NCBI GenBank assembly: GCA_014871385.1
Contig: CM026423.1
Coordinates: 17,225,690-17,289,689 of the forward strand
Direction: 5' to 3'
DNA from: Ceratodon purpureus
Lineage: Eukaryota > Streptophyta > Bryopsida > Pseudoditrichales > Ditrichaceae
Length of the DNA stretch: 64,000 bases
The translations under genes and the position numbers were made by a program. The notes beneath the pieces are model-generated. The model was given only the letters and a program-made list of their open reading frames with translations. It ran no database searches and was not told the origin of the DNA. Of this stretch, positions 1 to 64,000 are shown in pieces (position 1 is the first letter of the stretch; each line of letters begins with the position of its first letter).

Positions 1-1270
1 TGCACATGTTATAGGATCTGTTCAAACTAATTGTACTATATGTGTAGATTGAAGTTCATTAATGTTTTGTGGTAAATTTAATCGTTTTGAATGCAATGTA
101 TGCAATGCTTTAATTCAAGGTTTCCATAATTTCTCAGCTGATGTTAGAGTTACAAAAAATGTTGGTGGGCCAAGTTGTCTAATCATAGCAAATAGGTTTT
201 TCCTTAGTCCTTCGAAATAATCAGGAGAAGTACGTAGAGCTTGTAAATCACGATAGCCTGTATGTGACTTAAAAATCTGATCTAGATTTGGTTGCTCTCT
301 AACTTGAGAAGCTTTTAATGTCCTAGCATTTAGTTTTCCTTTTCAAATTCTTATAGATGCTGATTGTTTGATTTTTTGAATACATACTTTGGCTGCTTTG
401 AAGAATAAATTTGGAATATTCGTAGAAAAGTCGATAGACTTGTGTAATAATTCCCATTGCAAAATTTGTTGATATGTCAAGTTTTCGTATATAGTTGGAT
501 TTCTAGGATGACCAAAGAATAGTGTGGGAAAGTTGAGTTCTTCTAAATTTTTATCTTTAAATAACCCTAATGGATGGTAGTCTTTACCAAGAGCCACAGA
601 GTATACAATATTTTCATAATCAGATATTTTGGGTGCATCTGAAAAATTATGTATCATTGTGTCTGTTTCTACACCTTATAGGTTTTCATGATCTGAATCA
701 TCAGATGTTGATGTATCATCATCTGAGCCATTAAATGTTGTTGAATCATTTTGAACTTGATCAATTTGTGATTGTGTATGCATAGAAAATAATCCTTTTG
801 AATCTCGGCGTATTGTAATATTTAATTCTTTATATAAAGGAATATTTAGTAAGTCATTTAGTGCAAACATTATGAAGTTTGGACGAACGTTTCCAGACAT
901 ATATGGTGATTTGTATTCAAGACGTCGCTTTAAGAAAACACCAATAGTAGAATCATCTTGAGGTAGGCGTGGTAAAATTGATTGGGTTTCATTAACATTG
1001 GCTGGAACATTGATTACATTGCCATGCATTTTATATTGACCATAACCATGAATCTTATAAATTTGAGCAAAAGCCAAACGAGGAGAAATTAATCGTTCTT
1101 CTAATTGAGTCAATTTTTGTACTGATGGAATGATTTGGTTTCTTGATATTGAGTTTGGTACTTGATAGACAAATTTTCTCTTATTGTTGAAACTACTTAA
1201 ACAATTTGAACAAATGAATAATTTGATGTCATTGTTTTCTTTGATCTTTACATGGCTACATAATATTTAA
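1..1270 (-). pseudogene. Helitron replicase-helicase, central part (interrupted and decayed)
   Basis: Read on the minus strand, this is the middle of a Helitron protein. It holds a second Cys pair (FICSNC), the block LEERLISPRLAFAQI with GQYKMHGNVINVPANV (the DUF6570-like region), a segment with FPTLFFG, and near the window edge the Helitron_like_N block with LFAMIRQLG and LVRTDPITCA. It continues beyond position 1. The reading frame carries a TAA at 676-678, a TGA at 343-345 and a frameshift near 1250-1262, so this copy looks dead. It is the downstream continuation of the OTU-containing part at 61818-63540; a 60.5 kb element separates the two. Family assignment is by motif recognition; the claim that both parts are one copy is inference from complementary content and shared orientation. 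Confidence 0.85.
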
Positions 1271-1283
1271 CTATTTCTGGACT
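1267..1283 (+). repeat. Left end of the 60.5 kb element: TTAA target plus 13 bp TIR
   Basis: TTAA (1267-1270) is followed by CTATTTCTGGACT (1271-1283). The reverse complement occurs at 61801-61813, followed by TTAA at 61814-61817. A second inverted pair, TTTCTGGAC (1274-1282) with GTCCAGAAA (1310-1318), can form a subterminal hairpin. The right end has the analogous pair TTCTGGACT/AGTCCAGAA. The pre-insertion site in the Helitron would be the palindrome ATATTTAAATAT centred on TTAA. Confidence 0.85.
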
Positions 1284-1379
1284 ATTCATTGAGTTATGGA
1301 CTGTAGATCGTCCAGAAAAAGCCAAGGAAAATGAAAGGGGCTTAGTAAAACCATGCCCTACTGTTATGAATAGTGTATT

Positions 1380-1640
1380 ATTTGAATGATTGGATCAGGA
1401 GATCTTCCGATATAGAGTTGTTCCAAGACGAGGGAAATGTGTGGACTAAATAATGTTTAAACATTGTATGATTTGTAAGTCCATGGATCAGGAGATCTTC
1501 CGATATAGTGCCGTTCCGGAAGAACAAATGTATGGACAAAGTAATGTAATGAATAATGTGTGTTTTGCAAAACCATGGATCAGGAGATTTCCCGTTATAG
1601 GTGTCTTCCGGAAGAACAACATCCATCTCACAATTGCACG
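1380..1640 (+). repeat. Left subterminal tandem repeats, about 92 bp, three copies
   Basis: Three diverged copies start near 1388, 1481 and 1573. Each contains ATGGATCAGGAGATCTTCCGAT or a variant. Two also contain TTCCGGAAGAAC and the outer ones ATGTGTGGAC-like words. The core ATCAGGAGATCTTCCGAT is a degenerate relative of the 20 bp palindrome found across the rest of this element. Subterminal repeats of this sort commonly serve as transposase binding sites; that role is inferred here. The stretch 1640-1855 shows nothing further. Confidence 0.6.
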
Positions 1641-1855
1641 AGTGAAATGGTATGGACAAACTAAGTAATATAACATTACAGATAATACACATAGACCGAT
1701 GATGGGAAAATAGTCATTTACATTACAAAAACGGGTTACATAAATATGAGGTATTGTCATGAAAGTCATTCGAATGAACGGTGCCATATTATTACCACTA
1801 ATACATTGTAGTACATAGGGACACGGGATTGTAAGCAACTCACTGTATGTACTGT

Positions 1856-2458
1856 CTATTGTTCTACTCTACTGGTGTACCATTGCCTAAGTGATCTCCT
1901 ACACAATTCCCCATCCATGGGAGTTTTCTGAAGGAACTCAGTAACGGAGTCATAATGAACCAAATCCATAATGAATGGAAGTAAGGCTGTGCCGACGTCT
2001 GGTATGACGTTTCGCGGATTAGGTAGGTGCATTTCACCCTTCCAAGGAGTCGGGAAATAGCAGGAATGATTTCCATTCATTACATTCTTCCATTCACAGT
2101 CATCTACCATGAGAACTTTACCCGGTTTGCAAAACCTGCGAGTTTTTTTATCCATACGAAGTCGTTGCAGGAACTTCTGGAAGAATGGATAAGGCTTCTG
2201 TCGAACACACTTGTCTTGACCATACACAAAAATTAACTGCAATCTAAGCTCCAGTGGAAGCAGATGCGCTAAGACAAGGTCCAAGCGGGATGGGGGCATA
2301 CATGACCATATTCCAACATGGAAGTCTTCAAGAAGCTTTCGAAAGAACGGTCAAATTCCAGGACGGCAAATGACATTCCCTAAGTCCAGCAACGGCGGGC
2401 TGAATCCTTTATAATCCTCGAAGCACAGGACGCCATTAACCGAGAGAACTATCGCCTT
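1856..2458 (-). pseudogene. Second FCP1-like (HAD) phosphatase copy, inactivated
   Basis: A minus-strand exon opens after a splice acceptor (TGTGCAG at about 2459-2465). It encodes a shorter relative of the HAD/FCP1-like protein next door. The phosphatase signature block reads IVLSVNGVL where the neighbour has VVLDLNGVL, so the nucleophile Asp is Ser. Later blocks WSCMPPSR and VLMVDDCEWKN match FWTSIAPRN and VLLVDDSPQKN of the neighbour. An in-frame TGA at 2351-2353 (probably from CGA) breaks it. Loss of the catalytic Asp and the stop both argue for a dead gene. The relation to the neighbour is read directly; any former function follows the HAD family. Confidence 0.7.
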
Positions 2459-2508
2459 CTGCACAGTTGAAATAAAAACATCAGGACATTTCTACATCTG
2501 AGACTAAA

Positions 2509-2578
2509 CATCGAGGGATCTCCCGATGTTTGCAAATGACGAATTCGCTAACATAGTTCATCGGGGGATATCTCGATG
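2509..2578. repeat. Two 20 bp palindromes (TTAA-element family)
   Basis: CATCGAGGGATCTCCCGATG lies at 2509-2528 and CATCGGGGGATATCTCGATG at 2559-2578. Both belong to the family whose consensus resembles CATCGGGAGATCCCCCGATG, found only in this layer of the window. Confidence 0.9.
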
Positions 2579-2765
2579 GCGCCTCCCAACGCCATGGCAC
2601 ACAGAGGTGGTCAGACCATGTCTTGAAAGAGTATTACCACAGCAAAGCGATTTTAAAACAAAACAAATTCAAAGTTCCAGAACTCCATTGCGTTCAGTAA
2701 GACAAATGCAAATTTTCAGGAACTCGGTTAGTTTCATTCTGCTATCAAACATGAGGGAGCTACAG

Positions 2766-2980
2766 CTTCATTACATGGTCATGTGAGAGAATGTATGTGT
2801 TGACAATGAAGAACTCTGAATAAAATGAGTGTTCCATAATCCAAAGTCATTTGCACTAAACTACAATCTTCGCTTCATTACATGGTCATGTGAGAGAATG
2901 TATGTATTGACAATAAAGAACTGTGAATAAAATGAGTGTTCCAAAATCCAGAGTCATTTGTACTAAGCTACACCGCCCTC
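2766..2980 (+). repeat. Two-copy tandem repeat, about 107 bp
   Basis: The copies start at about 2766 and 2873 with CTTCATTACATGGTCATGTG and contain GAATAAAATGAGTGTTCC. They are about 90 percent alike. The second copy runs into the stop codon of the FCP1-like gene (2968-2970), so the duplicated unit is that gene's 3' flank. Confidence 0.8.
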
Positions 2981-5283
2981 AATATCTTCAGTGCCAAGTC
3001 CGACGACCGGTCCATGGGGAACTGACCAAACGGAAGCGGGGCCCGTTTTACATACTCTGGGACAGCTTTCCCTGAGCTGAATAGACCCTCCAGCCACGGT
3101 TTCAGTGTCATCGTAAGAAACCTATCACCACCATCTCCGGACCAGGTTGGGGGGTGGACAGCGTTATGAGGGTCGTTGAGAAGGTTCTTCTGTGGACTAT
3201 CATCCACTAGTAGGACTTTCTCAACGGACTCCAATACCAGCAACTTAGCAAAGACACGGAGATCCTTTAGAAAGAACGGCTTGTCTGGTTTTGACGACTC
3301 CACGTATGACGAACGTGTGCATTCGTTCTGGCTAAGAACCTGCACATCTGGCAGCTGTAAGGAGGTGCCCTGAAGAACAACAGGAAGAGTTTCAGGTATA
3401 TTCCTAGGCGCGATGCTGGTCCAAAAGGCTACCGTTGCCTGAGTATGAAGCCAGTTCAGGAATTCCTGGCATCCAGGTCTGATCATTATAGGGCGCTTTT
3501 TTCCCTTGACAAAAATCCCACGGTGAACGAGAACCCCGTTTAAGTCTAGTACAACCAAATACCTTCGACCGGGTACCTTTCCGATCACCTTTGCTGGAAC
3601 GGAGGATGGGAGAGGGGGCCCTGGAAAATGCAACAAAAAAAAGTCTCATCAGAATTCAGCATCGGGAGATCCCTCGATAAAGATGTCCACTGTAAACAGG
3701 TGTGATCAACATTCAGCATCGGGAGATCCCTCGATATAGATGTCCACTGTAAACAGGTGTGATCAACATTCAGCATCGGGAGATCCCTCGATATAGATGT
3801 CCACTGAAAGAATGTCATAGTAGATCCAAGCATCGGGAGATCCCTCGATGCACATGTTTACTGAATTCCTCAAGCATCTACAGGAGACCCTACACGTTCT
3901 ACATATGTCCAATCTGAGGACATTAGAACTATCAGTCCTACAATTAGAGTCCGACTAGATACCTTTCACACTGTCGTCCAAATTCGGATCTTCGGCTTCC
4001 GATGAAATGCCAACCGTTTTAGACGTCGGAATCTGGTAAAGGTTTTTTTTCAAAGTCATTAGTAAATGGGATTTTATCATTATAGTCCTTGTAAACGAAC
4101 TTGTGAGCCTGTCTAACTGCTTCAAGATGCTTAGCCTTGCGAGAGGGTGGGGTGTAATTCCCTCGCTGGGATATGTGATCCCTTACCTGTTCGTCCAGAC
4201 TAGCACGAGCTCCTGCTGGAGTGCTTTTTCCCTTAGGCTCTCTCTCAGCACCGGAACCTTTTCCCTTCCCCTTGACCCCCGTTCCGGTGCTAGGCCCAGA
4301 CTTACCCTTTCCTCGTGTGGCCGGGGGACCGGATGTTGTTCCCGACGGAAGTTCCGGCGGAAGGGATCGTTGCAAACGCTTCTCTAGCACAAGTGAGCGA
4401 CATTCACAATCTGTGTCCTTAGATTTCTCCACCTCGACTACATCTACCTCAGTGGATACCTCCGTAAGTGCGCCCTTCATATAAATCCTCGGTAGACTCC
4501 TCCACTTCCGCGTCGTTGTCTTTGACCTCGTCACATGCCTTCACATCGTCGCACACCGGGGCTTCCGCGTCGCACGACGTCTTCTCCGGGCTGAACGCGT
4601 CTAAATCCTTCAGAGTGTCGTCAACAACATCTTCGTTCATGTCAGGAGCCACGGGGGGAGACTGATGAGTCTCCCCGGGAGATGTAATCCGTGGGAGAAG
4701 AGGCGGGGGGCTGGATGGGAGAGGAGGCGGGGGGCTGCAAGGGATCACATAAGGTGTGACGGACAGCGAACTCTGAGGACCGCACTCCTCAGGTACGGGG
4801 GATTGGTGCACTGCCTTCTGTCATCGGGATATCTCCCGATGGTGGGATGCACGGTTCATGCTGACTATCAGCTACTCCTCCCTCCGTCTCCTGCTCTTGA
4901 AGAGGAGAAATCCTTCCCGGGTCCACAGCATCCCTATCCGTCCCCTCCGTATCCCTGTGAACTCCCGCGTCCTCCTCTCCTGCTGGTGCGGATTCATTCA
5001 TTCGCGGAACCGCAGCGAAGTTCTGGACATTAAAGTCCAAGTCATCCAGCCCGTCAGCACCCTCTCCCACGTCTTCTGCGCCACCTTCAGGTTCCGTAGT
5101 CTCAGTCTGGTGATCCACCGGTAATATCCTCATATCCAGCAGCGACCGAGCTACGTCCTTCGTGTTTCCCGACACGGTGGCAACATCGCTTCGTGGCGTC
5201 AAGGACTCCCCCACGTGAGAATCGTCAAAGGTGTGATCCCTCGACGCAGCTCCACCATAAACGCGCCCGGAGTTCAGCAGTCC
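2968..5283 (-). CDS. FCP1/NLI-type HAD phosphatase-like protein with long acidic N-terminal part; frameshifted
   Basis: The last exon (3620 down to 2968) has the FCP1 homology signature. YLVVLDLNGVLVHR is the DxDx(T/V) site with the second Asp replaced by Asn. It is followed by RPGCQEFLNWL, FWTSIA and VLLVDDSPQKN. Plant HAD relatives with D-x-N-G-L are known. An intron of about 0.3 kb (3621 to about 3965), loaded with 57 bp repeats, precedes it. The donor GTGAAAG|GTATCT and acceptor TTTTCCAG agree in phase. Upstream the frame is acidic, low-complexity and Pro-rich, starting after acceptor ATATTGCAG at about 5284. It is broken by a C5 run (4797-4801), a shift near 4480-4492 and an A8 run (4043-4050); each behaves as one extra base. 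A donor (ACCTCG|GTAGGT) just inside the end of the 5667-7452 exons matches in phase, so this may be the C-terminal part of the ParB-like gene. Confidence 0.6.
3660..3850. repeat. 57 bp tandem repeat, four copies, each with a 20 bp palindrome
   Basis: CATCGGGAGATCCCTCGAT occurs at 3660, 3717, 3774 and 3831, exactly 57 bp apart. The first three are separated by the same spacer (TAGATGTCCACTGTAAACAG type) and the last spacer has diverged. The array lies in the intron before the HAD-like exon. The strict spacing shows local tandem duplication, unlike the scattered copies elsewhere. Confidence 0.9.
4822..4841. repeat. 20 bp palindrome
   Basis: CATCGGGATATCTCCCGATG is a perfect inverted repeat. 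It lies within the reading frame of the acidic region, where it encodes PSGDIPMT. Confidence 0.85.
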
Positions 5284-5897
5284 CTGCAATATGAGCGCAG
5301 GTAACCATTAGCGGTAAGAAAAGCTGCAGTGGAGTAGAAATTGGGTTCCAGTATATGGTACAGGAATACTACAATGCCTTCGAAGTTAACCCGAGGAGCA
5401 GTGCTAAGCAAACAAAAGAGAGGTGCCTTGCTCACAAGAGTAGGGAATTTAGTCGTGAGGGGGATGTTACATGGAATGAAATAATTGGTCGGGAGAGGAA
5501 TAGCGTTTTCCAGAAATATAAATTCCTCATTTTCCATAATGGTATGCAATTTATGATGCTTACAGAATGGTACAGTTTCTTACAGAACCCCTACACGAGG
5601 ATAGTAATCATGCTAGATTTCGCCACTCGATAAAACAACATGGAATCCCAAATTAGGGAAGCCTGCCTAAGGTCGAGAACCTACCGAGGTGCAAGCCGTC
5701 TCCTCCTCGTCAGAGTTGGATTCGGAATCATCAGGCGGCGATTGCCCGCAGGCATCTTCATCAGCAGCCACACCATCTTCATTATCACCCTCTCCACCGC
5801 CTGCCTCATCATCACCATCGTCACCACCATCATTGGTTACCAATTTATCTGGGTCAACTGCGTCCTTGTAAAGTATGTCCCATATCTGCTTCGACGT

Positions 5898-5949
5898 CTT
5901 CTTCGCGTGTTCCTCATCATCGTCTTCTTCGCGTGTTCCTCATCATCGT
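5898..5949 (+). repeat. 26 bp tandem duplication inside an exon
   Basis: The unit starting CTTCTTCGCGTGTTCCTCAT is present twice back to back. Since 26 is not a multiple of three, it moves the minus-strand coding frame from the segment with EEHAKKT into a basic dead frame. The sequence after the second copy is open only in the original frame. Confidence 0.85.
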
Positions 5950-6112
5950 CACAGAAGACAACTTCGAGGACCATGGCTTCGTTTTCCTGTAGACATGCAG
6001 GCGATATGAACATGTATAAAATGCGAACAGCAGACTGTAACCAAATGTCACGTTCAATTTCATTGCGTAAGGGATCAGAGGTGCCGGGAAATGTGGACAG
6101 AAGTGCATGATT

Positions 6113-6197
6113 TATCGGGGGATCCCTCGATGATTTGAGAACCCCTTAAGCCTAGACTTTTAAGACGTTATCCGTCCATCGAGGGATCCCCCGATAA
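6113..6197. repeat. Inverted pair of 20 bp palindromes
   Basis: TATCGGGGGATCCCTCGATG (6113-6132) and CATCGAGGGATCCCCCGATA (6178-6197) are reverse complements of each other. The match extends a few bases outward (GATT/AATC), so the pair can form one long hairpin with a 45 bp loop. They lie in an intron of the ParB-like gene. Confidence 0.9.
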
Positions 6198-7452
6198 ATC
6201 TTGTATCCGTGAGGACATATCCGGAAACACTGAGGCTGAGAACAGAGAAGGACTTCTGACTTAGATTCTATATACGTGAGTGAACGAGTGCATATATCGC
6301 GAGTACTATAAGTGGAGGACATCTGCATAATAAGCCTCAAGAACAACAGTGTATTCGCACAAGTATGAACTAAAGTGGAAGCATTCGAGTCAGTGAAAGA
6401 GAAATATCTAATATGACTTCAACATTCGAAGGGTGCAGACAGAGTACTTACAAGTCCAAGGAGGGTGAAGTGAGCCCCGCCGTTGACGTTTACGAGCACC
6501 ATGTTATCTTTTAATGTGCTGCTGAAAGATAGTAGAAAGGGCGGCCACCTTAATCGTTGGTCGACCAGGTCGTCTCCATTGCTGGATGGTTTCCGTAATG
6601 TCTTTGGCCAGGTACACTGCGTCGAATGGCCTCTTGCCCGCAAAGAAATCCCCGAAGCATTCCTTCGGAGACTGCGTTGGCGAATAAGCGAAGCAGAAAA
6701 TCATGTAGACAACGTATGAAGAACCCAGCTCCGGTTCGGGAAATCCGTCCTCGCGGGAAGGGACGTAGTGGACCACATGCCAGTTCCACAACCTCCTCTT
6801 CGCTGTCCTCGTGCGCGTTTCGATGTGCAGTAGTGTCGCATGGAATCCCGCCGCATCTGTGAAGACAACTGCTCCTGAGCGAACAAAGACCTGCGTGCTG
6901 TTAAGTTCCTGCCCCAATAGAGGATCGAATATCCGAGACAGGACGTTCTCCTGTAGCACCTGAGCTTTCACTGGCATGTCAGCGATCGCATCAAACAGGA
7001 AGTACATGAATATGTGTGGTTTTGCCCCTCCTCTCCAACTATACACTTCTTCACTTCGCAAAATAACAGAAATCTCGGGCCTACTCCGGTCCGTAAGCAC
7101 GCACTTATACTTCTGATTGAACCCCTTCTGGATGTGCGATAAGTGACTTGCTTGCTCTTGTACCATGTTGTGAGCGTCCCACATCACCTTAACGAAGTCA
7201 GGCACGTCCGCAGGATCACACGTCTTGTTGAGGTTCCTGTTTCGGTCGTCCAGCCACTTCTTCCCTGCAGCCGTTGCATACGCCTTATCCAGCCAGCTCT
7301 CCAGCTCCGCCCGACCGATGTCTCTCGTATCGGCTAACTCCTCCCAGTCCGCAGCAGAATACATTATGTATGTGCTCTTACGGCTTGGAAGCTCGAAACC
7401 CATATAGTAGTTCATTAACTCGTTCTTCATACATCTGATCAGTCTTTCCCTA

Positions 7453-7479
7453 TTCCCTGCCATGGTTGTCATAATGGAC
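7453..7479 (+). repeat. hAT left end: target duplication TTCCCTGC plus 19 bp TIR
   Basis: TTCCCTGC (7453-7460) is followed by CATGGTTGTCATAATGGAC (7461-7479). The same TIR is inverted at 45073-45091, followed by TTCCCTGC (45092-45099). An 8 bp duplication is the hallmark of hAT transposons. Subterminal GTCCGTTA/GTCCGTCA words follow inside the left end and CGTCCG words inside the right end. Confidence 0.95.
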
Positions 7480-7594
7480 CGACCGTCCGTTAGTCCGTTA
7501 GTCCGTCATGGTGACAAGACAGACCCCCGTGTCCGTCACATAAGGGCGTTGACCAGTTGACTCACGGTAAGGGTAAAACGAATTTACCTAGCGC

Positions 7595-7915
7595 TGAATT
7601 AGTGCGGGCGCGAGCGCGATTACGGGCGCGAGCGGGTGGGCGCGAGCAGGACGACGGGCGCGAGCGTCCGCGCGAACGCGATGTCACGGGCGCGCGCTGG
7701 AGTGCGCGAGAGCGAGGGCGCGTGCGTCGTTCCGGCCGCGCGCGTGCGCCTGCGAACGGGCGCGAGCGTCGCTGCGGGCGCGATCCAGTCGACGGTCGCG
7801 AGCACACTTATCGGGCGCGGTCATGTGGGCGCGAGCCTGGATCGGGCGCGTGCATTTGGGCAAGTGCGCTGCATCGGGCGCCGGCGGTCGGGCGCGAGCG
7901 CTGCAGGTTAGTAGG
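7595..7915. repeat. GC-rich GGGCGCG array 1
   Basis: Irregular tandem words of GGGCGCG(A)GC type fill this stretch near the left end of the hAT element. All long open frames in it (Arg/Ala-rich) are by-products of the repeat. From 7915 to 8099 there is AT-rich sequence with no gene. Confidence 0.85.
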
Positions 7916-8099
7916 GAAAGAGCGACATCGGGCAAAATCATAAATGACAAGAGAGGGCATGTATTTCAGAAGAGGGCAATTGGGAAGTGCAATGTTTATT
8001 GAAAAGTTTTGCAAAATTGTGGCAGTAAACCACTTACAAAAAATGTCCCCTCTTATGGAGAACTGAGAATATCACATTGTTGTCACTACTTGCCTACTT

Positions 8100-9669
8100 C
8101 TAAATATGTTTGCGATAACAACACTCTGGGATTTGGAAATTGTAGGGAGGGGCTGTTAGAGTAGCGTGGACCAAACGCAAGGTGGAGCGGCTCTTGGGAT
8201 CGGGATTTGTGAGCTCCTTCAACGCCACCGCAAATCTAGCCTTCCCCGCTGTATCCTTGAAAAGGTCGAAGTCGTCCTCGTTATCCCAAATCTTATTTTG
8301 CTACCACTCCAACCGAGTACGCATCGGCAGCCTGCGTATATAGATGTCTCCTCCTTACAGTTTCATAAGAGGTCTCCGAATTTCGCTTACCATAAGTGTA
8401 CCACAACTCCGGAGCCACAAAACTACCACGTTCCTTGAAGGCTTCCGTACGCGCCTCATCACTTGGGTAACCGTACCTTGAAGGAGTTGTCTCACACACC
8501 CGACTTGCAAGGCCCCAGTCGCATACTCCAATGTAAACCTCGCTCACTTTATCCTCTGGGAAGTGAAGCAAGACATTTCCCGGGGAGATGTCATTATGCT
8601 GCAAATACCCCTTATGGACCCGGTCCATAATACAGATGAGTGCCCAAGCTAGCTTGGCCCTATGGGTGCGGAAGGCCTTAACACGGTCACGTGTTTCCAT
8701 GGGCATATCGATCTGCTTGTGGATGTTACGGTTCTGAGTACCCTCACCGATATTTGAATTGAACTTGTGCAGAAAATTCTGCAGGCAATCCCCATTCCAC
8801 CAAAGCGTGTAGGCTTCCATCGTCCAGTCATTGACCGCAAAAAACTTAATAACGCCGGGATGGTCAATTCTGCAAACCATGGCTTCTATTGATGTCTCGT
8901 GCCGCTTCTGGGTCTCGTCAGGAGCCTTGGACGTCTTCCCCGCAAAGACACAAGTCTCAGGTATGGTTTGCATGCCAACAATACGTAATTTTCGGACTTT
9001 ACCATAACCGCCTTCCTTTGTGCCTGACAGCGGAACCAACTTGACCCCTCTCGGAACTCCAACCACTGCTCCCCACAAGTACTTCTCCATTGCGCTTTTC
9101 AGTCCAGCTTCAAGCCATGGCCTCGCCCTCGTCTTATTATTCGAGAATCTCGCGCACGAATCCTGGACATATTTGAGCTTCTCTATCTCCTCCTTCTGCG
9201 CCCGCGAGTAGCCCTCCTTTGGCTTCTTGTTGACACACTCAAAGACATGCACAATGTTCGTAGTGTTTGTTGTTATTTGTTGCTCCATCCACTTAGGGAA
9301 ATGAAAGTAATGAATACAATCATTATATCTCTCGGAAAGGTCCAGCTTCTTCCACAAATACTCTTCCAAATGGGTCTTCAAGTCCTTAATTCCGGTCTCC
9401 CCCTTCTCAACGTATGTACGGGTAATCATCTCCCATTTCCGACATCCGTACCACTCCAATGCTAGCTCTCTAACGAAATCCTGGTACCGAGGAGGTGGGT
9501 AGTCCGGGTCCCTCTCACTCGCCGACTTCCGGTTCTTCTTTCCCGATGAGCTTGATGACGGGTTTGAGCCTGTAACGGTCGGTGCTGTGGAGGTTGCCAT
9601 CACATCCTCTACAGGAGCATCAAGATCTACGTAGGCAGGGCGTTTCCCGGATCCGCGAGAGACCGACAT
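8100..9669 (-). CDS. Protein kinase-like protein (FunK1-like active-site loop), frameshifted near the C-terminus
   Basis: The start is taken at ATG 9667-9669, giving about 522 residues once one extra base is allowed for. Residues 1-215 are Ser-rich and then helical, with no domain I know. A Gly loop (GGYGKV) is near 220. The catalytic loop LQHNDISPGNVLL is near 350, with the H-x-D-x4-N pattern. CDWG replaces DFG near 385, APELWY is near 415, and a C-lobe block LTNPDPKSR follows. 'DISPGN' resembles the FunK1-type kinases described in fungi and some other eukaryotes. The frame is broken at an A4 run (8296-8299) that would be A3 in the intact frame; open coding continues to TAG at 8100-8102. Its promoter has a TATA-like TAAAAG at about 9847-9853 and GC array 2 just upstream. 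Kinase fold is a confident call; substrate is unknown. Confidence 0.8.
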
Positions 9670-9846
9670 AGTTGGAATAATGAACTGGACACACAATAAA
9701 AAAAAAACCAAAAGATCCCCCCCACCCAATCTGGTTGCTCCCACTTCCTGCAGTTCCAAGCAGAGCACGTGGAGTCACGGGCTAGGACAAGGAGCCACCT
9801 GGAAGAGGAGACTTTGAAAAGTAGAAAATAAGGGTTAAGGGGCGCC

Positions 9847-9853: not shown

Positions 9854-9854
9854 C

Positions 9855-53230: not shown

Positions 53231-53273
53231 GTCCCTCCAAAGTTTTATGTGACCTCGAAAATTCTAAAATAGA

Positions 53274-54368: not shown

Positions 54369-54677
54369 CATCGGGAGATCCCTCGATGCTGCTTTGGAGA
54401 TCATAATCGAGAGACACTCATCGGGAGATCCCCCGATCCTATAGAAGTTAGACCCTCATCGAGAGATCCCCCGATACTTCTTTGGAGATCCTCATCGAGA
54501 GACCCCCATCGGGAGATCCCCCGATCCTAAAGGATTTAGACCATAATCGAGAGATCCCTCGATACTTCATTGGAGATCCTCATCGGGAGATCCCCCGATC
54601 CTATCGAATTTAGACCCTCATCGGGAGATCCCTCGATCCAATAGAATTTAGACCCGCATCGAGAGATCCCCCGATAC
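54369..54677. repeat. Eight 20 bp palindromes in front of the DDE gene
   Basis: Copies start at 54369, 54419, 54458, 54508, 54545, 54581, 54619 and 54658, with a partial at 54492. Spacers repeat short words such as ACTTCTTTGGAGATC and TAGACC. The last copy ends 19 bp before the proposed start codon at 54697, so the cluster sits where a promoter or 5' leader is expected. Confidence 0.92.
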
Positions 54678-54696
54678 TTCTTTGGCTCTCGTGAAA

Positions 54697-57600
54697 ATGG
54701 ACTCTGAGAGTGACAGTGACGGTCCCCAGATGCCGTCTGTGGGTCCTTCCCGTCACGACTTCTCTCAGGAGTCAACTGCTCGCTCAGATGAGCTTCGACC
54801 CGGGCAGTCTGTGAAGCTTGTCGTCCCCCGTTTCGGAGATGTTGGAATCGGATCTGTTGTCGACGTTAATCCTTCTGGGCAGTGGCTTGGGGTTTGCATT
54901 CCACCTAGCTCTTCAGAATTTTTTCTTGTGCGACCATCAAGCATCGTGTCGGACGCAGAGGACCTCTTTCTCGAACCACGCCAGAGAGGCTGCATCGTTT
55001 TGAGGGATGCTTTAAATCGAACAGTCCTCTAGAGAGCTGGTGATGCGATTGCATTGTTGCAGGATCCTCCCACGAACGATGTTGAATACGTTCGTCAACA
55101 ATCCTGGATTGGTCTGGAAGTTCAGAAAGTGGACCTTGCGGGTGCGGTTATAGCCTCCGGTAGAGTGTTCTGCTCAGAACCGGAGGAGTATTTCCGAGAC
55201 GGAAGATTGGGCGAGGGATACATTGGAGTGACAATCCTCGACGTCTTTGTCGGGGACACTGATGCCATAATGAGTAATGAGCGTTGGTTGATATCTGAAT
55301 GCAAATTCCCGAACGGCCCTTCTCTTCGGTCAACAGTAGAGCACTTCTCCCGAATCCCAATGGAGGTAGATCCACAGGAGCACCTTGGAGGCAGACGGAA
55401 GGCACCTTACCGGTTTATAGTGCGGAAACCTAAAACGCATGAAAAACGTTTGCTGTACAATACGAAGACAGCGGATGCTGAAGTGAGGAAGGTTAGCTCC
55501 GAACGATGCTGCTCGAAGCATTGCTGTCAGACATTTCCCCAGGAGCTCACGCTAATAGTGCGTAAGAAATTCTATTCGAAATCCTTTCAGGGAAGACGGG
55601 AATACGGGATTGCGGCGGGTGGACAGATGCATTCAGTCGACGGTGACCGTAGGAGGAAGTACTTGACGCTGCATGGTTCGGAAGTTTGCGCAACTGCGTG
55701 GTATCTTATTCACGGAGTTCCCAAGTCAACTTTTCATAGCTATGTCCAAAGATACAACGAAGGGGTTCTATCAACAGCGCATGGAAACAAGGGCTACAAG
55801 CGACCGAGGATCGGAACAGTTCAAGTCATGGGTACTATTGCTGCTATTGTAGACGAGAATGCAGATCAGATGCCCCATCAAATGCGAGGAATCGGAAATG
55901 GACGAGTGGACACTCTGAAATATCTTCCAGCAGGCAACAACTGGAAGCGGGTGATGGCTGATGCCAATGAGGTATGAGTCCTTGCTTCGCGTTTCTTGTA
56001 GTGTCATTGCATCGGGAGATCTCCCGATAGAGGTTACTTTCGTATTGACAGTCAGTTCTCTGTCTTATAGTATCGTTGCACTCTACCTACGTCATGCAAT
56101 ATAGAACTCTTTTTCTCGTCTTCGGTGATTTGTCTGAATTTGTCGTCTAATACTTCGAGCTTGTTTGCTTGCGTGCGTCGCTTTCTTTTCCTCACCAGCC
56201 ATTTGAACGTACCGGTGCTTTGCAGACAAATGTTTCATTAGGTCTGCCTACAGTGAGCCAGTCTACAATTAGTAGAATTAGAAGTTCACTCTTCAACAAT
56301 ATCGCAATCAAACCGGTTGGAAGTTCTTTTGCGAAATGCTCGACGTGTGACCAACTTCAAGAATTCATTCTGAAGTCAGCCAACGGAAGTCCAGAATATG
56401 TTGACTTCGTGAAGCAACGGGAGGAGCATCTTGCTCACCAAGCCTCTTGTCGTCGTCTGTATGGTGCATGGCGCAAAGAATCAAAGCGCAATCCCAGTGA
56501 GATTCTGTGCATCATTCATGATAAGATGGATACTGCAAAAACCGCCCTTCCCCGGATGCGGGTTACAACAAAGGCTACTCAAGGTTTGGGCCAACTTCCC
56601 ATGAACGTCACTGGTATGGTTTCACATGGGCACGGGGATGGCGCCTATGCACATTACTGTCCTCAATGTTGGCCAGGAGATTCTAACGTCACAATATCGT
56701 CGTTGGCGAGGCTGTTCCGTCGACTGGAAGGCCCCTCATTTCGGGAGTCTGGGAAACTATTTGAGTACCCCCCGCAAAACTCACTGTTCGAGACATTGTT
56801 GAGGGGGAAGTCTAGGTGCCTCGACATTTTACCGCGTATCGAGGGATCCCCCGATGTCCCAGGGTCGAAACCTTTACCGAGGAAGTTATACCTTCAACTG
56901 GATAACTCCGCCAAAGATAACAAGAACCAATATCTCATGGCGTTTCTCTCCCTACTAACTGCACGGGGTGTTTTCAAGGAAATTCAGGCTGGATTTCTAC
57001 TAGTGGGTCATACGCACGAAGATATTGACGCTTATTTTAGCCATTTGTCGAAGGCGTTAAAAAGCAAGAATACGTTCGTTCTAGCGGATCTAATGAAGGC
57101 CTTCATGCAGTCCCAGGAGTTGTCATTCATGCCGGAGTTCATTCAAGAGGTTGCAGACTTCAAGTCTTTCATCAAAGGCTACCAAAGTAGTGGTGCAGCA
57201 CGCCTTATTGGACTTGGAGAGATGCACCTTTTCAAGTTCTATGTGGACGATGATGGTTGGCCGGTTATGAGGTACAAGAAGTCAGCCGTCGACCCACAAT
57301 GGCTACCCCTCAACAGACCCCCTATTCGATTGTGGAATGAAAACATGGATGGCGGCCCAAAACTTCCTCACGGCTCACCGAAGCCGGTTCCGTTCAAACC
57401 TATGTGGGGAAGTGAGGTTCCTAAATCTACTGGGAATCAGGTGAAGGCGAGAGAGACCGCAGCCAAAGCTACTGAGAACAAGAAATTCATGAAGTGCGGA
57501 CTCCAAAAGTACATTGAGTACTGGAAAAATGGAATGGCAAAATGCGAGGGATTTGCAGCAGCGTTTGGGCCTTATGTTGACTACTGGACTCGTTTGTTGT

Positions 57601-58166
57601 CTGAGCTTGATAAGCCTTTGCCAGTGACAAATCCTGAATTGTTAGAGGGTTTCTGGCCCCGCCATGACAGGAGGGACGTATCCAACGGAGTACCGCGCCC
57701 AAGATTTTTACAATTTTTACTTGAGGATGTGACTCCTGAGGATGAGGAACCAGAAGCGTATTGTGGCCCAGCAAACCAAGCTCCGGAGAGTCCTTTCAAT
57801 CCGTGGCGTGATATTCGGCCTGGCAGCTGGGTTCTTTTGAGACCTGAAGATCCACTCATTTGTCCTGTATGGCAGGGAAGAGCAGCGACTGCTGTATGCA
57901 GAGAAGAAGGCCATGTAAACCATGGGAAATTTTTAATTCAGTTTTGGGAACCTCGTAGCGCGGAAAGAGACCTTGCATTGAAATACCGTAACTGTTGGTC
58001 TGCTAAGTGGGTAGTAGAGACGCGTGCTCCGGAGTGGGTCTCTGTTGGTGCAACTCTGTTTCAAAATTGGTCAAAAATCAAGGACCCGTCCACTAGAACC
58101 ATTCCTAAGAAATCTATGGAGGCTGCTTTAGCAAACTTAGAGAGAGCTAACGTAGTTGATCCATGA
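54697..58166 (+). CDS. DUF7869-like DDE transposase candidate
   Basis: The model is join(54697-55971, 56199-58166), about 1,080 residues, with a TAG at 55030-55032 inside an otherwise open frame. A Cys-rich segment (ERCCSKHCCQTFP) is near residue 270 and a KCSTCDQL/SCRRLYGAW zinc-like block near 470-510. The RNase-H-like core has IHDKMDTAKTALPRM near 530, KLYLQLDNSAKDNKN near 654 and GHTHEDIDAYFSHL near 694. These are the conserved blocks of the DUF7869 family, whose acidic positions fit a DDE nuclease. A 20 bp palindrome (56837-56856) is inserted in frame between the first and second blocks. It is the only transposase-like gene in the net TTAA element, hence the likely mobiliser. The 3' acceptor at 56198 could instead be 56225. 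Confidence 0.75.
56010..56029. repeat. 20 bp palindrome in the intron of the DDE gene
   Basis: CATCGGGAGATCTCCCGATA; one mismatch from a perfect inverted repeat. Confidence 0.88.
56837..56856. repeat. 20 bp palindrome inside the DDE coding exon
   Basis: TATCGAGGGATCCCCCGATG encodes part of RIEGSPDVPG, between CLDIL and KPLPRKLYLQLDN, and keeps the frame open. Confidence 0.9.
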
Positions 58167-59287
58167 TCCTCTATGCCACTTAGGCACGACAGAGGGTCAT
58201 CCCTCGATGATTACATCTGAGTCACCTGTCTTCCTCATTCTCCATTAAAGAAATAAGAGTCATCACTGCTTGACCGTTTCTCATCCCCGTGTAATATCAT
58301 CCTTCCTCGTCTCAATGATGTTTGTTTCTGAGATTTGTGACACTTTAAGAACCATGACGATCATGACTGCGCAACGTGGAGACTGGTTGTGGAAGCAGAT
58401 GGAGTAGTGGGAAACTGGAGGAAGGAAGTAGAAGCTTTTAGAACAAGGGGGGAAGGAGAGAAACTGCAGATTCATACGCCCAGTTCATTTGGTGTCGATA
58501 AACTTGAACTCCGGGCGTTCTGTTCAGGAGCGACTTTGGCAGCGGCAGTAGAAAGCAACGCAAGTTCCCGAGCAGGTGAGAGCAATGCACACATGCAGGG
58601 GCCATGGCCAATCGACTTTAGTTTTTAGTTGAAATTCTCTTTTTTGCGTTTTTGGTTGTGTTGCGTATCGAGTCTGTTGGGTTCTTGAGCAATTAGCAAC
58701 ACGAGTCATTGAGATTAGCTGGTGTATTAGTTTGAGCAGATACGGTTGGCATGTAATTAGGTTTTGGTCCACTGGAGTCGTCGTTTTCCTAATACATATG
58801 GACATACAATGTCGACAGCCTGATCCCACTGTATGTTGTTGCATTTTTGTCTAAGTTTTATCACTGTTATCGTGACGAGTTGAGCGGGTTTCATTTGTTG
58901 AGGTAAAGACGCAGTTGATTGATGTCTACTCGAGACATCTACTTGTTCACGAATTGGTAGTTTGTTTGAGGGGTACTACTGATAACACATGTCGATCGAG
59001 TACTTTTGTTGAGGTGGAAATTTGGCTAAGTGATGCGATGAACTTGTAGAAAAAAGGATTTGCTGTTTAGGGTTCAGGGTTTAGGGCTCTGGAGGTGGAT
59101 TTACATTCATATACATCATGTGTTTCAGTTGAAGGGTTTGAGATAACATATCTTGTCATCAGTTTTTTAGTTTCTTTGAAGTGTGTTGTGGTTATTGGTT
59201 CTTTCGGATCTGCTTTTATGAACTTCATGTGGGTCTAGAATTTTCTAATCTTTTTCTCTTGAATTTTTTTTTCCACAGTTCCCAGGT
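58167..59287. other. Intergenic; degenerate palindrome and weak exon candidate
   Basis: A degenerate palindrome (GAGGGTCATCCCTCGATG) at about 58190. A short frame (58389-58628) could be a leader exon of the next gene: a TTCCACAG acceptor precedes 59280. No family is recognised. Confidence 0.4.
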
Positions 59288-59920
59288 ATGGAACAGGATC
59301 CGACTCTCACGAAGGGGAAGATGATGATGATTGAGGATGGTTCAACCTCCCAGAAGGAAGTCCAGAATATGGTCTTCAATGGAGATTGCGAGAAACCAGA
59401 ACTTCCAGTCTGGAGAGATTCAGCAGCAAGGAGAGGTGGAGAGTTTCAATTCATGAAAGATGCACCTCTCAACCTGCCATGCCTACGACATTGGCTGAAG
59501 GATCTGAAGACATTTCAAGAGACAACAAAGTATGAAGTTCCTGATTATGACAAAGTTTCTGGGATGAATTGTGAAGGATGGGATGGAACTTGGAGCTCCA
59601 TTGCTTTGAGGCAATTTGTGGCCGTTGCAAATGCAACTGGGGTGATGCACCCTCCAAGGAACAAGAAGAACCAACTCGACTACATGAGGAATCAGGTCCT
59701 TTCCATCATGAAGCACCTGGAAGAGACAATGGAGATAGAAGGGACAATGGAGACAGAGCCAGCTCCAGCTCCAACAGTGCCAGCTCCGACAATGGCAACT
59801 CCGAAAGCGACTGGATATTCTTTCGCCAAATATCAAGCCGCCATCAACAAAATGGAAGAAAACCTCAACAAAATGGAAGAAAACCTCAACAAAATGGAAG
59901 AAAACCGCAAGGACCTGTAA
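59288..59920 (+). CDS. Hypothetical protein, 210 residues, with triplicated C-terminal heptad
   Basis: The frame starts EQDPTLTKGKMMM. The middle (CLRHWLKDLKTFQETTKYE, GWDGTWSSIALRQFVAV, NQLDYMRNQVLSIMKHLEE) looks like a folded helical domain with conserved-looking Trp and aromatic residues. It is followed by a Pro/Ala/Thr linker and three direct repeats of NKMEENL (21 bp units, about 59848-59910) that would extend a coiled coil. Family unknown. It is the last intact gene before the right end of the TTAA element, downstream of the DDE gene on the same strand. Confidence 0.55.
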   Translation: MEQDPTLTKGKMMMIEDGSTSQKEVQNMVFNGDCEKPELPVWRDSAARRGGEFQFMKDAPLNLPCLRHWLKDLKTFQETTKYEVPDYDKVSGMNCEGWDGTWSSIALRQFVAVANATGVMHPPRNKKNQLDYMRNQVLSIMKHLEETMEIEGTMETEPAPAPTVPAPTMATPKATGYSFAKYQAAINKMEENLNKMEENLNKMEENRKDL

Positions 59921-61100
59921 GTGTGGTGGATGCCTTACGAGGAGGATTTTACTTCTGATGTAGCGGATATGTTGTAGTCAGAGACTTCAGGTGCCATTGA
60001 GGCAGGTTTTGTAGTTCTATGTTTCAGCGGACACGTAGGAGATTTTGTGTAAAAACATTTCTACTGTTCTCGTTCTCTGGACAATTCTGTTTAAGTACTT
60101 TCACAGACTTTAGTTGCCATTGAGCCCGGTTTAGAATTTTGACTAGATGACATGAAGTACTCGTAATTGTAAATTCTCAATCTGTAATGGTGGTTGTATG
60201 AGCACGGTTACACCTATTTGTTAAATAGGTTTGAATGTGTGAATATCGCAATGCACTGGATCGGCAGGACGTAATTGACCGATTGCAAAATTAAAATAAA
60301 TTAATTCCTCAGAAAACAAAAACTAACATCGCACAGAAAATAACGCCCTAAACCAAAACTGTTTACAGTTTTTTGATCAGAGATCCTATATGCTGTTTAG
60401 GTACGACATCGGGAGATCCCTCGATGATTACGTCTGAGTCACCTGACTTCCTCATTCTCTATTAAAGAACGCCCTCCTCATGTTCTCATAGTAATAGATT
60501 ACGTTCGCTGTATGTCTTGCGCAGAATTCCATTGCCTGATGATCAGTTCGTGGTGATTGTCAAGAGGATGAGTCCGTGCTTTAGACCTGCACTTCTCGGT
60601 TTTAATCCCTGAACTTCATACCATCTGATCCTGTTTTCCTCTTTGCTTCTGAACTTGCAGGCATTTTCCACATGTTTAACTTCTTGCTGCTAATCAGCTC
60701 AGATATCGGAAGGGGACTTTAGCAAGTAGTTAGCAAGACCGTTATATCCTACGATGTTTGGTAACCATAGATGTAAAAACAGATCACTTTCATCTTTTTG
60801 TATCTCTTGTCGAAGGTGTCCCCCGTGTGGGTTGTGAACTACTTTTTGAATGGAATGCCTTCAAAACAGAGTTGCTTTGAATAATAAACAGAGTTTCATT
60901 TGATGCTTTCATATTTGTATATTTCGTATTCTAAGATTTCCATGGTTTAGAATAAATTTAGTAGTAGCAAATCTAGAATAGTTTCAAAACTGCTTCACAT
61001 TATAATATGTCGGTCATGTTTGATATTGGGGTATTGCGTGAAAAATAATTCTGAGGCCGCAAGCCTTGTACCTGATTGTATGTTTGCCATGTGATATCCA
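59921..61100. other. Gene-poor; duplicated 3' flank of the DDE gene
   Basis: 60395-60475 (palindrome at 60408-60427, then ACGTCTGAGTCACCTGACTT) repeats the 3' flank of the DDE gene at 58178-58255. Nothing else is recognised. Confidence 0.6.
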
Positions 61101-61135
61101 TGGTTCTACTCTGACATCGCGGGATCCCCCGATGA

Positions 61136-61363
61136 ATGGTAGAGTACTTCCGAGCCCACATCTCTTCCTCTCTTCCGTTGGTCACTGTTGATGACGTGGT
61201 GTATGCAACTTCGTCGTGGATCATGGATCCGACGTGTAGAATCATTCCCAAGATAGCCATGGAATCTGCGTTAGCAAATGTATTGGGAGACAATGTTTCT
61301 GATCGGAGACCCTATGTGCTGTTTAGGTACGACATCGGGAGATCCCACGACGAGTCCGTCTGA
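61136..61363 (+). pseudogene. Duplicated tail of the DDE gene
   Basis: The frame contains DPTCRIIPKIAMESALANV, which mirrors DPSTRTIPKKSMEAALANL at the very C-terminus of the DDE protein, followed by the same 3' flank with a damaged palindrome at about 61333. Palindrome CATCGCGGGATCCCCCGATG at 61115-61134 lies just before it. Only the gene's end has been copied. Confidence 0.75.
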
Positions 61364-61780
61364 GTTAATTCTCTTCCTGAGTTAATTCTCTTCCTTCTGA
61401 TCGGAGATCCTATGTGCCCCCATCTCTTCTATTCATTTGTATTACCGTAATCCCAATGTATGTATATCTCGGTCAAGTTGGGTGCTGGGGATCCCGTGAT
61501 GAATATTGTAGAGCCGAAATCCCTTCTGTTTTCCGTTCCTTGCTCGCAATGTACGTATAATTATCTGGGTCAGTTTTGCTATCGGGGGATCTCGTGACAC
61601 ATACTCTGGAGCCCAAATGTCCTCTGCTCTTTAATATCTCGCTCGCAATTTACTTATATCTTGGTCAAGTTCGGTGTCGAGAGATCCCGTGATGAATACT
61701 TCTGAGCCCGTCCACGACGGTTCTTCCCATACATTGTTACATTTATGCTCTAAATTTGAGGACCAATGATCGGGTGATTA
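61364..61780. repeat. Right subterminal degenerate repeats
   Basis: About four units of 90-110 bp carry decayed palindromes (GGGATCCCGTGATGAATA, GGGGGATCTCGTGACACATA, GAGAGATCCCGTGATGAATA) plus TATATCT(C/T)GGTCAAGTT. They mirror the left subterminal repeats (1380-1640) in position and in using a palindrome variant. Confidence 0.65.
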
Positions 61781-61785
61781 CTTAA

Positions 61786-61817
61786 TTCTGGACTCTGGAC
61801 AGTCCAGAAATAGTTAA
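61786..61817 (-). repeat. Right end of the 60.5 kb element: TIR and TTAA
   Basis: AGTCCAGAAATAG (61801-61813), then TTAA (61814-61817). TTCTGGACT (61786-61794) with AGTCCAGAA (61801-61809) forms a hairpin with a 6 bp loop. Confidence 0.85.
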
Positions 61818-63540
61818 ATATGGCATATATTTTTTGTTCTAATCTTTTTGTAATTGGATGGAGTTGTTTTTGAAAAAACAATCTTTCACAAATAAAACAA
61901 GATATTATTGGAACATCTTCGATGTTTTTGTTGAAAATATCTACATGCTTAGATTGAAAATTGTTTTTATTAATTCTGTTTTTTAAAATTTCTTGGCTTT
62001 CTTCATCAATGGTTTCATTTTGAGTTGGGATTATGTTATTAGATGTGTTTTTTTGTAAATCACTAATAAATCTTAGAACTTCAACTTTTGTTCTATCAAT
62101 GTTTGGAAAATAGTTTGTGATTAATTCTATCTTGTCGTTAAGACTTGAATTAGTGTTAAGTTCTAGAATTTTAGCAATTGTATTTTGATATGGTGTCCAA
62201 TCAAACACTTTTCTTTTTTGCGTTTTATTTTTTAAATAACGAATGTGTTTCTCCAACTGAAGCGAAGTGATGTTGGTTTTAGATATACAATTAAATGAAG
62301 ATAAGACAACTGGAAGTGATGAGTTAGGATTCTGTTCTAAGATTTGAAATAATACTGCATCATGATTTTTATTGAATCGAAATGTTTTAATACTTTGATT
62401 AATTTCGGTAATGTTTGAAATACCCGAGGGAGATTGTGTGTCGGGCTTTGAAAACAAACTAAAATTCTTCTCTCTATTTAGTTTAGTGTTTGGTAAAGAT
62501 TTATTTATTTTTATTTCTAAACTTACACTTAGTGTAGTTGTGTTTATTACTGTACTAATAGCGCCATCAAGAATTGTTTTTTGTTTTTTGTTTTCAGAAT
62601 TTAGGGTATGTACTTCTTCATTATCTCCTTCATTTGAAATAATATTAAAGGACACTTCTTTTTCATAGCAAGGTGTACAATCACTACCTTCATTAAAGTT
62701 CTTTTTCATATTGTTCAGTTTTCTTTTTTTAAGCACAGTCATATGATTTCTTAGTTGGACAATACTAATTTTTGTCTTACAAAATGTATTGAATAATAGT
62801 AAAATGTTTGATAAAGGTAACTCTTTATTATTACTTAAGATCTCTGTTAACGTTGATTCATACTCATTTGTCCAACAAAATTTCTTGGTTGATTGTGAAA
62901 AGTCCTTTTTATTAGAATCATTTAGTATTGATGATTGAAGTTGTGTTTCATTCAAATCTTGTATATAATCAATAGGTTCATAATGACCATCATTTTTTAA
63001 GCCTGTACTAAATGCTATATGCAAAGGATCACCAATATAATCAACCCCACACTTTTGCATGATGCGTTTTGATAATTTGCTCCACACATGAATTGGTCTT
63101 TGTAAATATTCAGCTATCCAACATGTGGCTGTGAAATCTCTCCATATCCCTCCATTTGTTGCACTAAGTGACATCCTTTCAATATATTGATGTTCATTTA
63201 ATATTTGTCCATCATGCAAATCATGCAAAAATTGTAGATTCAATTCTCGAAGTCGACATTGTTGTGCTTTTGGTGTATTATTTGTCAAACAATGTTTTAA
63301 GTAATTCATGCTATTTTGTCTCAATGAAATAGATGACATAGAATATTTAAGCAAGTAAGATATAATATCAAATAAACAATCACCAACATTGTAGTGATAT
63401 CTAGGATTCAAATGCAAGTTGTATGAAAGTAGCACATCATCAAATGAATGAAGCAAAGTGTTCTGATTAACTTGACTCACTTCTCCTAGTTCTTCAAGTG
63501 AAACACATACATAGTCATTTGAAGAAGACATTTTGGCCAC
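61818..63540 (-). pseudogene. Helitron protein N-terminal part: OTU protease, three Myb-like repeats, first Cys pair
   Basis: The minus-strand frame starts at 63540 or at the next Met (SSSNDY). OTU-type cysteine protease signatures are NVGDCLFDIIS (Asp/Cys near 54-55) and GHYEPI (His near 187). Three repeats of about 55 residues with WT...LTEIL, spaced at about 220-275, 383-435 and 443-495 (FCWTNEYESTL, FRFNKNHDAVLF, FDWTPYQNTIAKIL), look like Myb/SANT-type DNA-binding units. A zinc pair CFICERLFF is near 547. OTU domains occur in Helentron-type Helitrons. Coding is cut at 61817 by the TTAA element (the 23 codons read into it are spurious) and resumes in the left part at 1-1270. Confidence 0.82.
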
Positions 63541-63936
63541 TCAAAGTTTTTGCTTAGTTAAATAATGAACAATAAAAATAAATAAAATCTCGGTATTCTC
63601 GGAAATCTCGGAATCGCGGGAAACAATACATATACTACAAATATATAAAACACAATGAAAAAAATTACTCTTATAACAATATAAGTATCACAAGTATATT
63701 TTTTTTGAAACTAAACAAAATCTATATAAAAGATTATTGAAGTATTATAGTCACTCTATATATTGTAGAAACTAGTCATCTATCAAAATCAAATATTATA
63801 AACTTTAAACATGAAGCATTAATGTACTATTCAATGTAAACATAAACATAAAATATGTATATAGAATATATATATCTCTATACAATAAGATTTTCAACTA
63901 CCTTATATAATAAAAAAATATGACAAATGAACACTT

Positions 63937-63974
<38 letters not shown>

Positions 63975-64000
63975 ATGAAGATGGAGCCTCTTCAAACAAC
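63541..64000. other. Helitron 5' flank
   Basis: AT-rich, with a 33-35 bp poly-T tract at about 63940-63973. No Helitron 5' terminus could be fixed. Confidence 0.5.

What the first reader, a model, noticed from the sequence alone, without database searches (positions are those of the whole stretch)
1..64000. Four transposons nested like Russian dolls: Helitron > TTAA element > hAT > MULE
Three complete sets of terminal inverted repeats with matching target duplications (TTAA; TTCCCTGC; ATGGAGGAGA) lie one inside another, and the outermost flanks are two parts of one Helitron gene. Each set has a superfamily-appropriate duplication length. The order of insertion can be read directly: Helitron first, MULE last. 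Each guest is a large multi-gene element, so this is a stack of cargo-carrying giants and not a pile of small MITEs.
Basis: partly seen in the sequence, partly recalled or inferred. Interest (0 to 1): 0.93.

Follow-up and report, generated by a model that had tools for sequence, protein, structure and literature searches.

The report
Three giant transposons nested in Helitron
In the DNA of an unidentified eukaryote, three unusually large cut-and-paste jumping genes sit one inside another within the remains of a fourth, and one of them appears to carry its own DNA-methylating enzyme gene.

Summary
The nest is real. The two halves of each split element share DNA words with each other; the other 19 segment pairs stay within chance. 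The outer flanks are a decayed Helitron-family gene whose ends are not in the window. Removing the hAT leaves a 473-aa open frame in its host; removing the MULE leaves a regular tandem array. The guests' own lengths are 22.9, 14.6 and 23.0 kb.

What I add: (1) the TTAA element encodes a DUF7869 protein predicted to have a DDE/RNase-H integrase fold, best read as a Sola-like transposase; (2) that element alone carries 38 copies of an 18-bp near-palindrome; (3) the innermost transposase has no convincing Pfam match, but its fold matches ISCth4 and a GCM DNA-binding domain; (4) the MULE carries a methyltransferase-type domain, scored on exons joined by hand.

Nesting itself is ordinary; sizes, cargo and the DUF7869 link are the new points. 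The host genome could not be searched, so other copies and empty alleles are untested.

The parts
61750..63540 (-). Right flank: N-terminal part of the Helitron-family gene, OTU-like (the last bases of this ORF at 61750-61817 are element and TSD)
   Evidence: OTU E 9.5e-4, 20.1 bits, below the Pfam cut-off of 23.3; one metagenomic homologue, 48% identity, which bears the OTU domain
118..1266 (-). Left flank: later part of the same gene, DUF6570 and Helitron_like_N, four stops in the frame, gene runs off the window
   Evidence: DUF6570 E 2.3e-17; Helitron_like_N E 4e-7, 30.9 bits over 28.9; stops
1267..61817 (.). TTAA element with both TTAA copies; 22.9 kb of its own DNA; interrupted by the hAT
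   Evidence: TSD and 13-bp TIR; own length
55033..55977 (+). ORF upstream of the DUF7869 ORF, read as first exon of the same transposase gene
   Evidence: resembles the N-terminal half of Physcomitrium P0018 by eye; no Pfam hit
56151..58166 (+). DUF7869 protein, predicted DDE/RNase-H fold: candidate transposase of the TTAA element
2968..3645 (-). Cargo of the TTAA element: NIF/FCP1-type phosphatase domain
   Evidence: PF03031 E 1e-16, 61.5 bits over 21.8
45632..46942 (-). Cargo of the TTAA element ('gene A', first part), with a ParB-like FFIIGGQH signature by eye
   Evidence: no Pfam hit; aligns with the MULE ORF 27751-28395 at that signature, E 0.006 in a single comparison
6504..7460 (-). Downstream part of the TTAA-element gene split by the hAT; frame open for 473 aa across the joined site
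   Evidence: 155 aa before and 318 aa after the junction
1394..61351 (.). 38 copies (31 exact) of the near-palindrome ATCGRGRGATCYCYCGAT, only in the TTAA element's two halves; first at 1394, last at 61334
   Evidence: 2 of 38 start inside listed ORFs, 45505 and 56838
7453..45099 (.). hAT element 7461-45091 with its TTCCCTGC duplications; 14.6 kb of its own DNA; interrupted by the MULE
11675..13510 (-). hAT transposase
   Evidence: DUF659 E 1.1e-34 and Dimer_Tnp_hAT 25 bits over 21.4
8293..9774 (-). hAT cargo: protein-kinase-like ORF
   Evidence: Pkinase E 7.7e-7, 29.2 bits, below the cut-off of 31.7
40716..43373 (-). hAT cargo: 885-aa ORF, RING-like cysteine cluster by eye
   Evidence: zf-RING_2 only at E 1.4
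15333..15690 (.). 143/144-bp tandem array of the hAT, left part, target of the MULE
38725..39242 (.). Same array, right part
15681..38734 (.). MULE 15691-38724 (23.0 kb) with its ATGGAGGAGA duplications
   Evidence: TSD; 68-nt TIRs, arms 15696-15763 and 38652-38719
19454..21685 (-). MULE transposase, main ORF: GCM-like DNA-binding part and RNase-H fold
17972..19444 (-). ORF after the main transposase ORF, with a SWIM pattern CxC-x20-CxH
   Evidence: pattern found; no Pfam hit
27751..33993 (+). MULE cargo: split gene; ParB-like signature by eye in its first ORF, methyltransferase domain in exons at about 32.7-33.9 kb
   Evidence: three hand-joined exons: N6_N4_Mtase E 5e-7, 30.3 bits over 26.7, profile positions 163-217 of 221 only; DpnA E 3.6e-7; one join is a GT-AG intron 33684-33790
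24041..27712 (.). 171-bp satellite of the MULE, 21.5 copies; further copies at 31252-32179 and 35112-35448

Best explanation
Successive cut-and-paste insertions built this locus. A TTAA-targeting DNA transposon, probably Sola-like with a DUF7869 DDE/D transposase, inserted into a Helitron-family gene. A hAT element inserted into a gene of that transposon with an 8-bp duplication. Last, a Mutator-like element inserted into a tandem array inside the hAT with a 10-bp duplication. Each guest is a large element with a transposase, other genes and its own repeat arrays. Shown: boundaries, duplications, layer-specific repeats, an open frame across the hAT site, a regular array across the MULE site. 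Inferred: that the DUF7869 protein moves the TTAA element, that the element is Sola, that the elements were autonomous, and what the cargo does.
For: TSDs and TIRs. Layer-specific DNA words and near-palindrome. Open frame of 473 aa across the hAT site; random joins median 43, 99th percentile 448. Array restored at the MULE site. hAT domains. MULE fold and SWIM pattern. Helitron domains. DUF7869 fold. Sola description: DDD transposase, 4-bp TSDs, TIRs from 11 bp, some over 15 kb, present in Physcomitrella (PMC10741241, passages); DUF7869 relatives in Physcomitrium and Ceratodon.
Confidence: 0.85

Rival explanations
1. The TTAA element is a piggyBac or Kolobok element and the DUF7869 protein is only cargo.
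For: Both superfamilies make TTAA duplications (PMC9587614, passages).
Against: No transposase domain of either kind among the 17 TTAA-element ORFs scanned with Pfam. Kolobok ends in 5'-RR and YY-3'; this element begins 5'-CT. The DUF7869 model shows the order of strands, helices and acidic residues of a DDE enzyme.
Confidence: 0.12
2. The innermost element is not a Mutator-like element but belongs to an undescribed superfamily.
For: Pfam does not recognise its transposase: 0 families at E 10 or better for both ORFs; of 43 alignment members one reaches Transposase_mut, at E 0.18. None of 71 homologues has an organism name.
Against: ISCth4 holds Foldseek ranks 1-4 and the GCM domain rank 5; ISCth4 tops the second aligner. 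[quoted passage not shown] SWIM pattern, 10-bp TSD, 68-nt TIRs.
Confidence: 0.08
3. The nest is an assembly artefact: unrelated repeats joined by the assembler.
For: The MULE sits in a tandem array, a common place for misjoins; long reads were not available.
Against: Misjoins do not make matching 4-, 8- and 10-bp duplications next to inverted repeats, nor an open frame over one joined site.
Confidence: 0.03

Closest known systems
Sola DNA transposons (for the TTAA element)
   Same: 4-bp TSD, short TIR, DDD-type transposase, presence in moss, some members over 15 kb (PMC10741241, passages)
   Different: Own length 22.9 kb with cargo and 38 near-palindromes; sequence relation to reference Sola transposases not tested
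hAT superfamily
   Same: 8-bp TSD, TIRs, DUF659 and Dimer_Tnp_hAT
   Different: 14.6 kb of its own DNA with kinase-like and large unknown ORFs
Mutator-like elements (MULE) and Pack-MULEs
   Same: 10-bp TSD, 68-nt TIRs, Mutator/IS256-type fold, SWIM pattern
   Different: 23.0 kb; the Pack-MULEs of one study did not exceed 7 kb (PMC6431247, passages); carries a methyltransferase-type gene; transposase unrecognised by Pfam
Helitron
   Same: DUF6570 and Helitron_like_N domains
   Different: decayed fragment; helicase and ends not in the window
Giant eukaryotic transposons (Polintons, Teratorn, Chondrus EnSpm, Starships)
   Same: multi-gene cargo in a defined element; 15-25 kb, 41-182 kb and 16-20 kb for the first three (PMC6431247, passages); Starships seen in a search listing
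   Different: three different cut-and-paste superfamilies stacked in one place; no viral genes or tyrosine recombinase among the ORFs scanned

Membership tests
hAT | 8-bp TSD with TIRs | tested here: met
   TTCCCTGC, perfect 19-bp TIR
hAT | hAT transposase domains | tested here: met
   DUF659 and Dimer_Tnp_hAT above cut-off
MULE | TSD of 7-12 bp (PMC10741241) | tested here: met
   10-bp ATGGAGGAGA; flanking array units differ from other units
MULE | relatively long TIRs | tested here: met
   68 nt, 91% complementary
MULE | Mutator/IS256-type transposase | tested here: met
MULE | recognition by curated MULE profiles | tested here: inconclusive
   no Pfam hit at E 10 or better; 1 of 43 members to Transposase_mut at E 0.18
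Sola | 4-bp TSD and TIR of 11 bp or more | tested here: met
   TTAA, 13 bp
Sola | DDD-type transposase | tested here: inconclusive
   DDE/D order and RNase-H fold predicted, weak by Foldseek
Sola | sequence relation to reference Sola transposases | not tested
   no reference sequence was available
piggyBac | piggyBac transposase domain | tested here: inconclusive
   not found in 17 scanned ORFs of the element; shorter ORFs not scanned
Kolobok | termini 5'-RR and YY-3' | tested here: not met
   element begins 5'-CT and ends AG-3'
Helitron | Helitron_like_N protein | tested here: met
   E 4e-7, above cut-off
Helitron | Helitron ends and helicase domain | not testable with these tools
   outside the window; the gene still runs at its left edge

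The most novel reading that the evidence does not exclude
An uncultured eukaryote lineage hosts a guild of giant cut-and-paste transposons with regulatory cargo. The TTAA element is moved by DUF7869, an unrecognised transposase family. Its element-wide array of 38 GATC-centred 18-bp near-palindromes is the binding or marking site of an element-encoded ParB-like protein, and the MULE carries its own N6/N4-type DNA methyltransferase, so that these elements organise and modify their own chromatin.
Probability: 0.15. Interest if true: 0.78.

Novelty: new variant of a known kind. Interest (0 to 1): 0.52.

Why it matters
Transposition efficiency of DNA transposons is said to drop above about 6 kb of cargo (PMC6431247, passages). 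Three elements of 15-23 kb from three superfamilies, stacked in one place, show that natural ones can be much larger. Linking DUF7869 to a transposase-type fold and a TTAA-bounded element would give a function to a Pfam family of unknown function found in mosses, a liverwort and lancelets. A methyltransferase-type domain inside a MULE gives a testable case of a transposon that may modify DNA. The stack also gives a readable relative chronology.

Tried and rejected
Host identity: not found. Named DUF7869 relatives are Physcomitrium, Ceratodon, Riccia and Branchiostoma (120 of 122 listed, only the 8000 best candidates scored); the closest relatives (up to 84% identity) are unnamed metagenomic proteins. 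None of the 71 MULE-transposase homologues has an organism name.

Other copies: viral contigs gave no DUF7869 relative, 8 contigs with the 17-base TTAA-plus-TIR string (I take these as chance, by my own rough estimate, and read none), none with the hAT TIR, none with two near-palindromes close together. Genome contigs gave two contigs.

Viral origin of DUF7869: no match at E 0.001 or better in BFVD. Kolobok: rejected on its termini. piggyBac: no support. A mobile near-palindrome inserted into the transposase gene: dropped, because relatives P0001 and P0002 are nearly as long at that place (by eye). A home-made gene finder fused neighbouring genes; its models are not used as parts. Further nested elements: a scan for TSDs of 4-10 bp with 10-bp TIRs gave no other convincing pair by eye. 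Papers: DUF7869 in none of the held papers; searches on nested or giant cargo elements and on transposon methyltransferases showed, in their listings, no report of this stack or of a methyltransferase in a MULE; most listed papers were not opened.
Full report
1. The observation. Every coordinate in the finding checks out. TTAA stands at 1267 and 61814, outside a perfect 13-bp inverted repeat. TTCCCTGC stands at 7453 and 45092, outside a perfect 19-bp inverted repeat. ATGGAGGAGA stands at 15681 and 38725, outside a 68-nt inverted repeat that is 91% complementary. A scan of the window for pairs more than 2 kb apart gave one pair with an exact 8-bp duplication and a 12-bp TIR, the hAT pair, and 8 pairs with a 4-bp duplication and a 13-bp TIR: the TTAA pair and its register shift, a register of the hAT repeat, three hits between near-palindrome copies, and two poly-A hits. 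The MULE duplication lies in a tandem array; of five units matching ATGGNGGAGAGG only the two flanking the MULE have the A, so it is not simply the array's own repetition.

2. Independent test of the layers. I counted 13-mers shared between seven segments, low-complexity words left out, against 20 Markov resamplings. The two hAT segments share 215 (mean 2.4, maximum 8). The two TTAA segments share 29 (mean 4.2, maximum 14). Each of the other 19 pairs lies within its resampled maximum (0 to 11 shared). The near-palindrome ATCGRGRGATCYCYCGAT occurs 31 times exactly and 38 times with up to 2 mismatches, 11 in the left and 27 in the right TTAA segment and 0 elsewhere; five resampled sequences gave none. 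It probably makes much of the TTAA excess, so the two are not independent. It starts 123 bp inside the left end and stops 462 bp short of the right end; 2 of 38 copies start inside the ORFs that I list. Joining the hAT's flanks leaves a frame open for 473 aa; random joins in the same DNA had median 43, 99th percentile 448 and maximum 624, with 24 of 2000 at 400 or more, so this supports rather than proves. Joining the MULE's flanks continues the array.

3. The outer layer. On the minus strand the right flank reads an OTU-like protein (E 9.5e-4, below the Pfam cut-off), with one metagenomic homologue. The left flank reads DUF6570 (E 2.3e-17) and Helitron_like_N (E 4e-7). The joined site is out of frame and the left part has four stops. 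This is a decayed Helitron-family gene whose ends and helicase are not in the window.

5. Which superfamily. A review describes Sola as having a DDD transposase, 4-bp TSDs, TIRs of 11 to 1124 bp, mostly 2-9 kb with some over 15 kb, and as present in the moss Physcomitrella (PMC10741241, passages). The element fits what could be tested, and DUF7869 occurs in Physcomitrium and Ceratodon. I recall, from no call, that one Sola group prefers TTAA. Kolobok fails on its stated termini (PMC9587614, passages). No piggyBac domain was found in the 17 ORFs of the element that I scanned; many shorter ORFs were not scanned (one search lists 367 of 60 aa or more in the window). Comparison with Sola sequences was not possible.

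6. The hAT (14,587 bp of its own): DUF659 and Dimer_Tnp_hAT above cut-off, a kinase-like ORF just below it, and an 885-aa ORF with a RING-like cluster by eye, which Pfam gives only at E 1.4.

8. The MULE's cargo. Plus-strand exons between 27.7 and 34 kb include a methyltransferase-type domain. One exon alone gives only E 0.041. A 245-aa sequence that I joined by hand from three exons scores 30.3 bits against a cut-off of 26.7, but only over profile positions 163-217 of 221, and matches the adenine methyltransferase DpnA at E 3.6e-7. I chose the joins by eye, which favours a match; the decisive join does correspond to a GT-AG intron at 33684-33790, the other is not resolved. The catalytic DPPY-type motif is read by eye as DLIIADLP. 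The first ORF has a ParB-like GNH signature by eye; gene A of the TTAA element has GQH, and the two align there at E 0.006 in a single comparison, which is weak. Pfam names no ParB domain in either.

9. Mechanism and order. From established knowledge of DDE transposition, staggered strand transfer makes the duplications, so each marks one insertion, and nesting gives the order TTAA element, hAT, MULE. The Helitron gene predates all three.

10. Novelty. Nested transposons are well known (for example papers listed, seen as a listing only). Searches on nested or giant cargo elements showed no report of this stack in their listings, and the library is partial. In the review passages read (PMC6431247) the Pack-MULEs of one study did not exceed 7 kb and EnSpm elements of 16-20 kb are called enlarged. 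The sizes, the methyltransferase-type gene in a MULE and the DUF7869 link are the new points; the last two rest on prediction.

11. Limits. The host-genome tool did not complete (15 calls), so there is no organism, other copy or empty allele. Exon structures are unproven. Cargo functions are inferred from domains.

Noticed in passing
window 53274-53353: A short degenerate AAACCCT/GAACCCT stretch, like plant-type telomere repeats, inside the TTAA element beside a 127-bp tandem array (51318-53224).
   Followed up: no
window 1-1266 and 61818-64000 against the rest: Helitron flanks are 28.5% G+C, the guests 43.7%, 51.6% and 46.0%.
   Followed up: no
window 24041-27712, 31252-32179, 35112-35448, 15333-15690, 38725-39242: Each guest has tandem arrays of its own: 171-bp satellite in the MULE, 143/144-bp array in the hAT.
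   Followed up: partly
L001 2761-3408, L002 6081-6257: Two contigs binned as Bacteroidetes MAGs encode DUF7869 relatives; perhaps eukaryotic contamination of the bins.
   Followed up: no
P0028 and P0141: A DUF7869 relative and a MULE-transposase relative report the same longest contig length, 204,689, so both families may occur on one contig.
   Followed up: no
P0094, P0096: Two lancelet DUF7869 proteins are fused to a Ulp1-type peptidase.
   Followed up: no
window 37582-37943: 22-bp tandem array, 16.5 copies, inside the MULE, which makes an open frame of short repeats.
   Followed up: no
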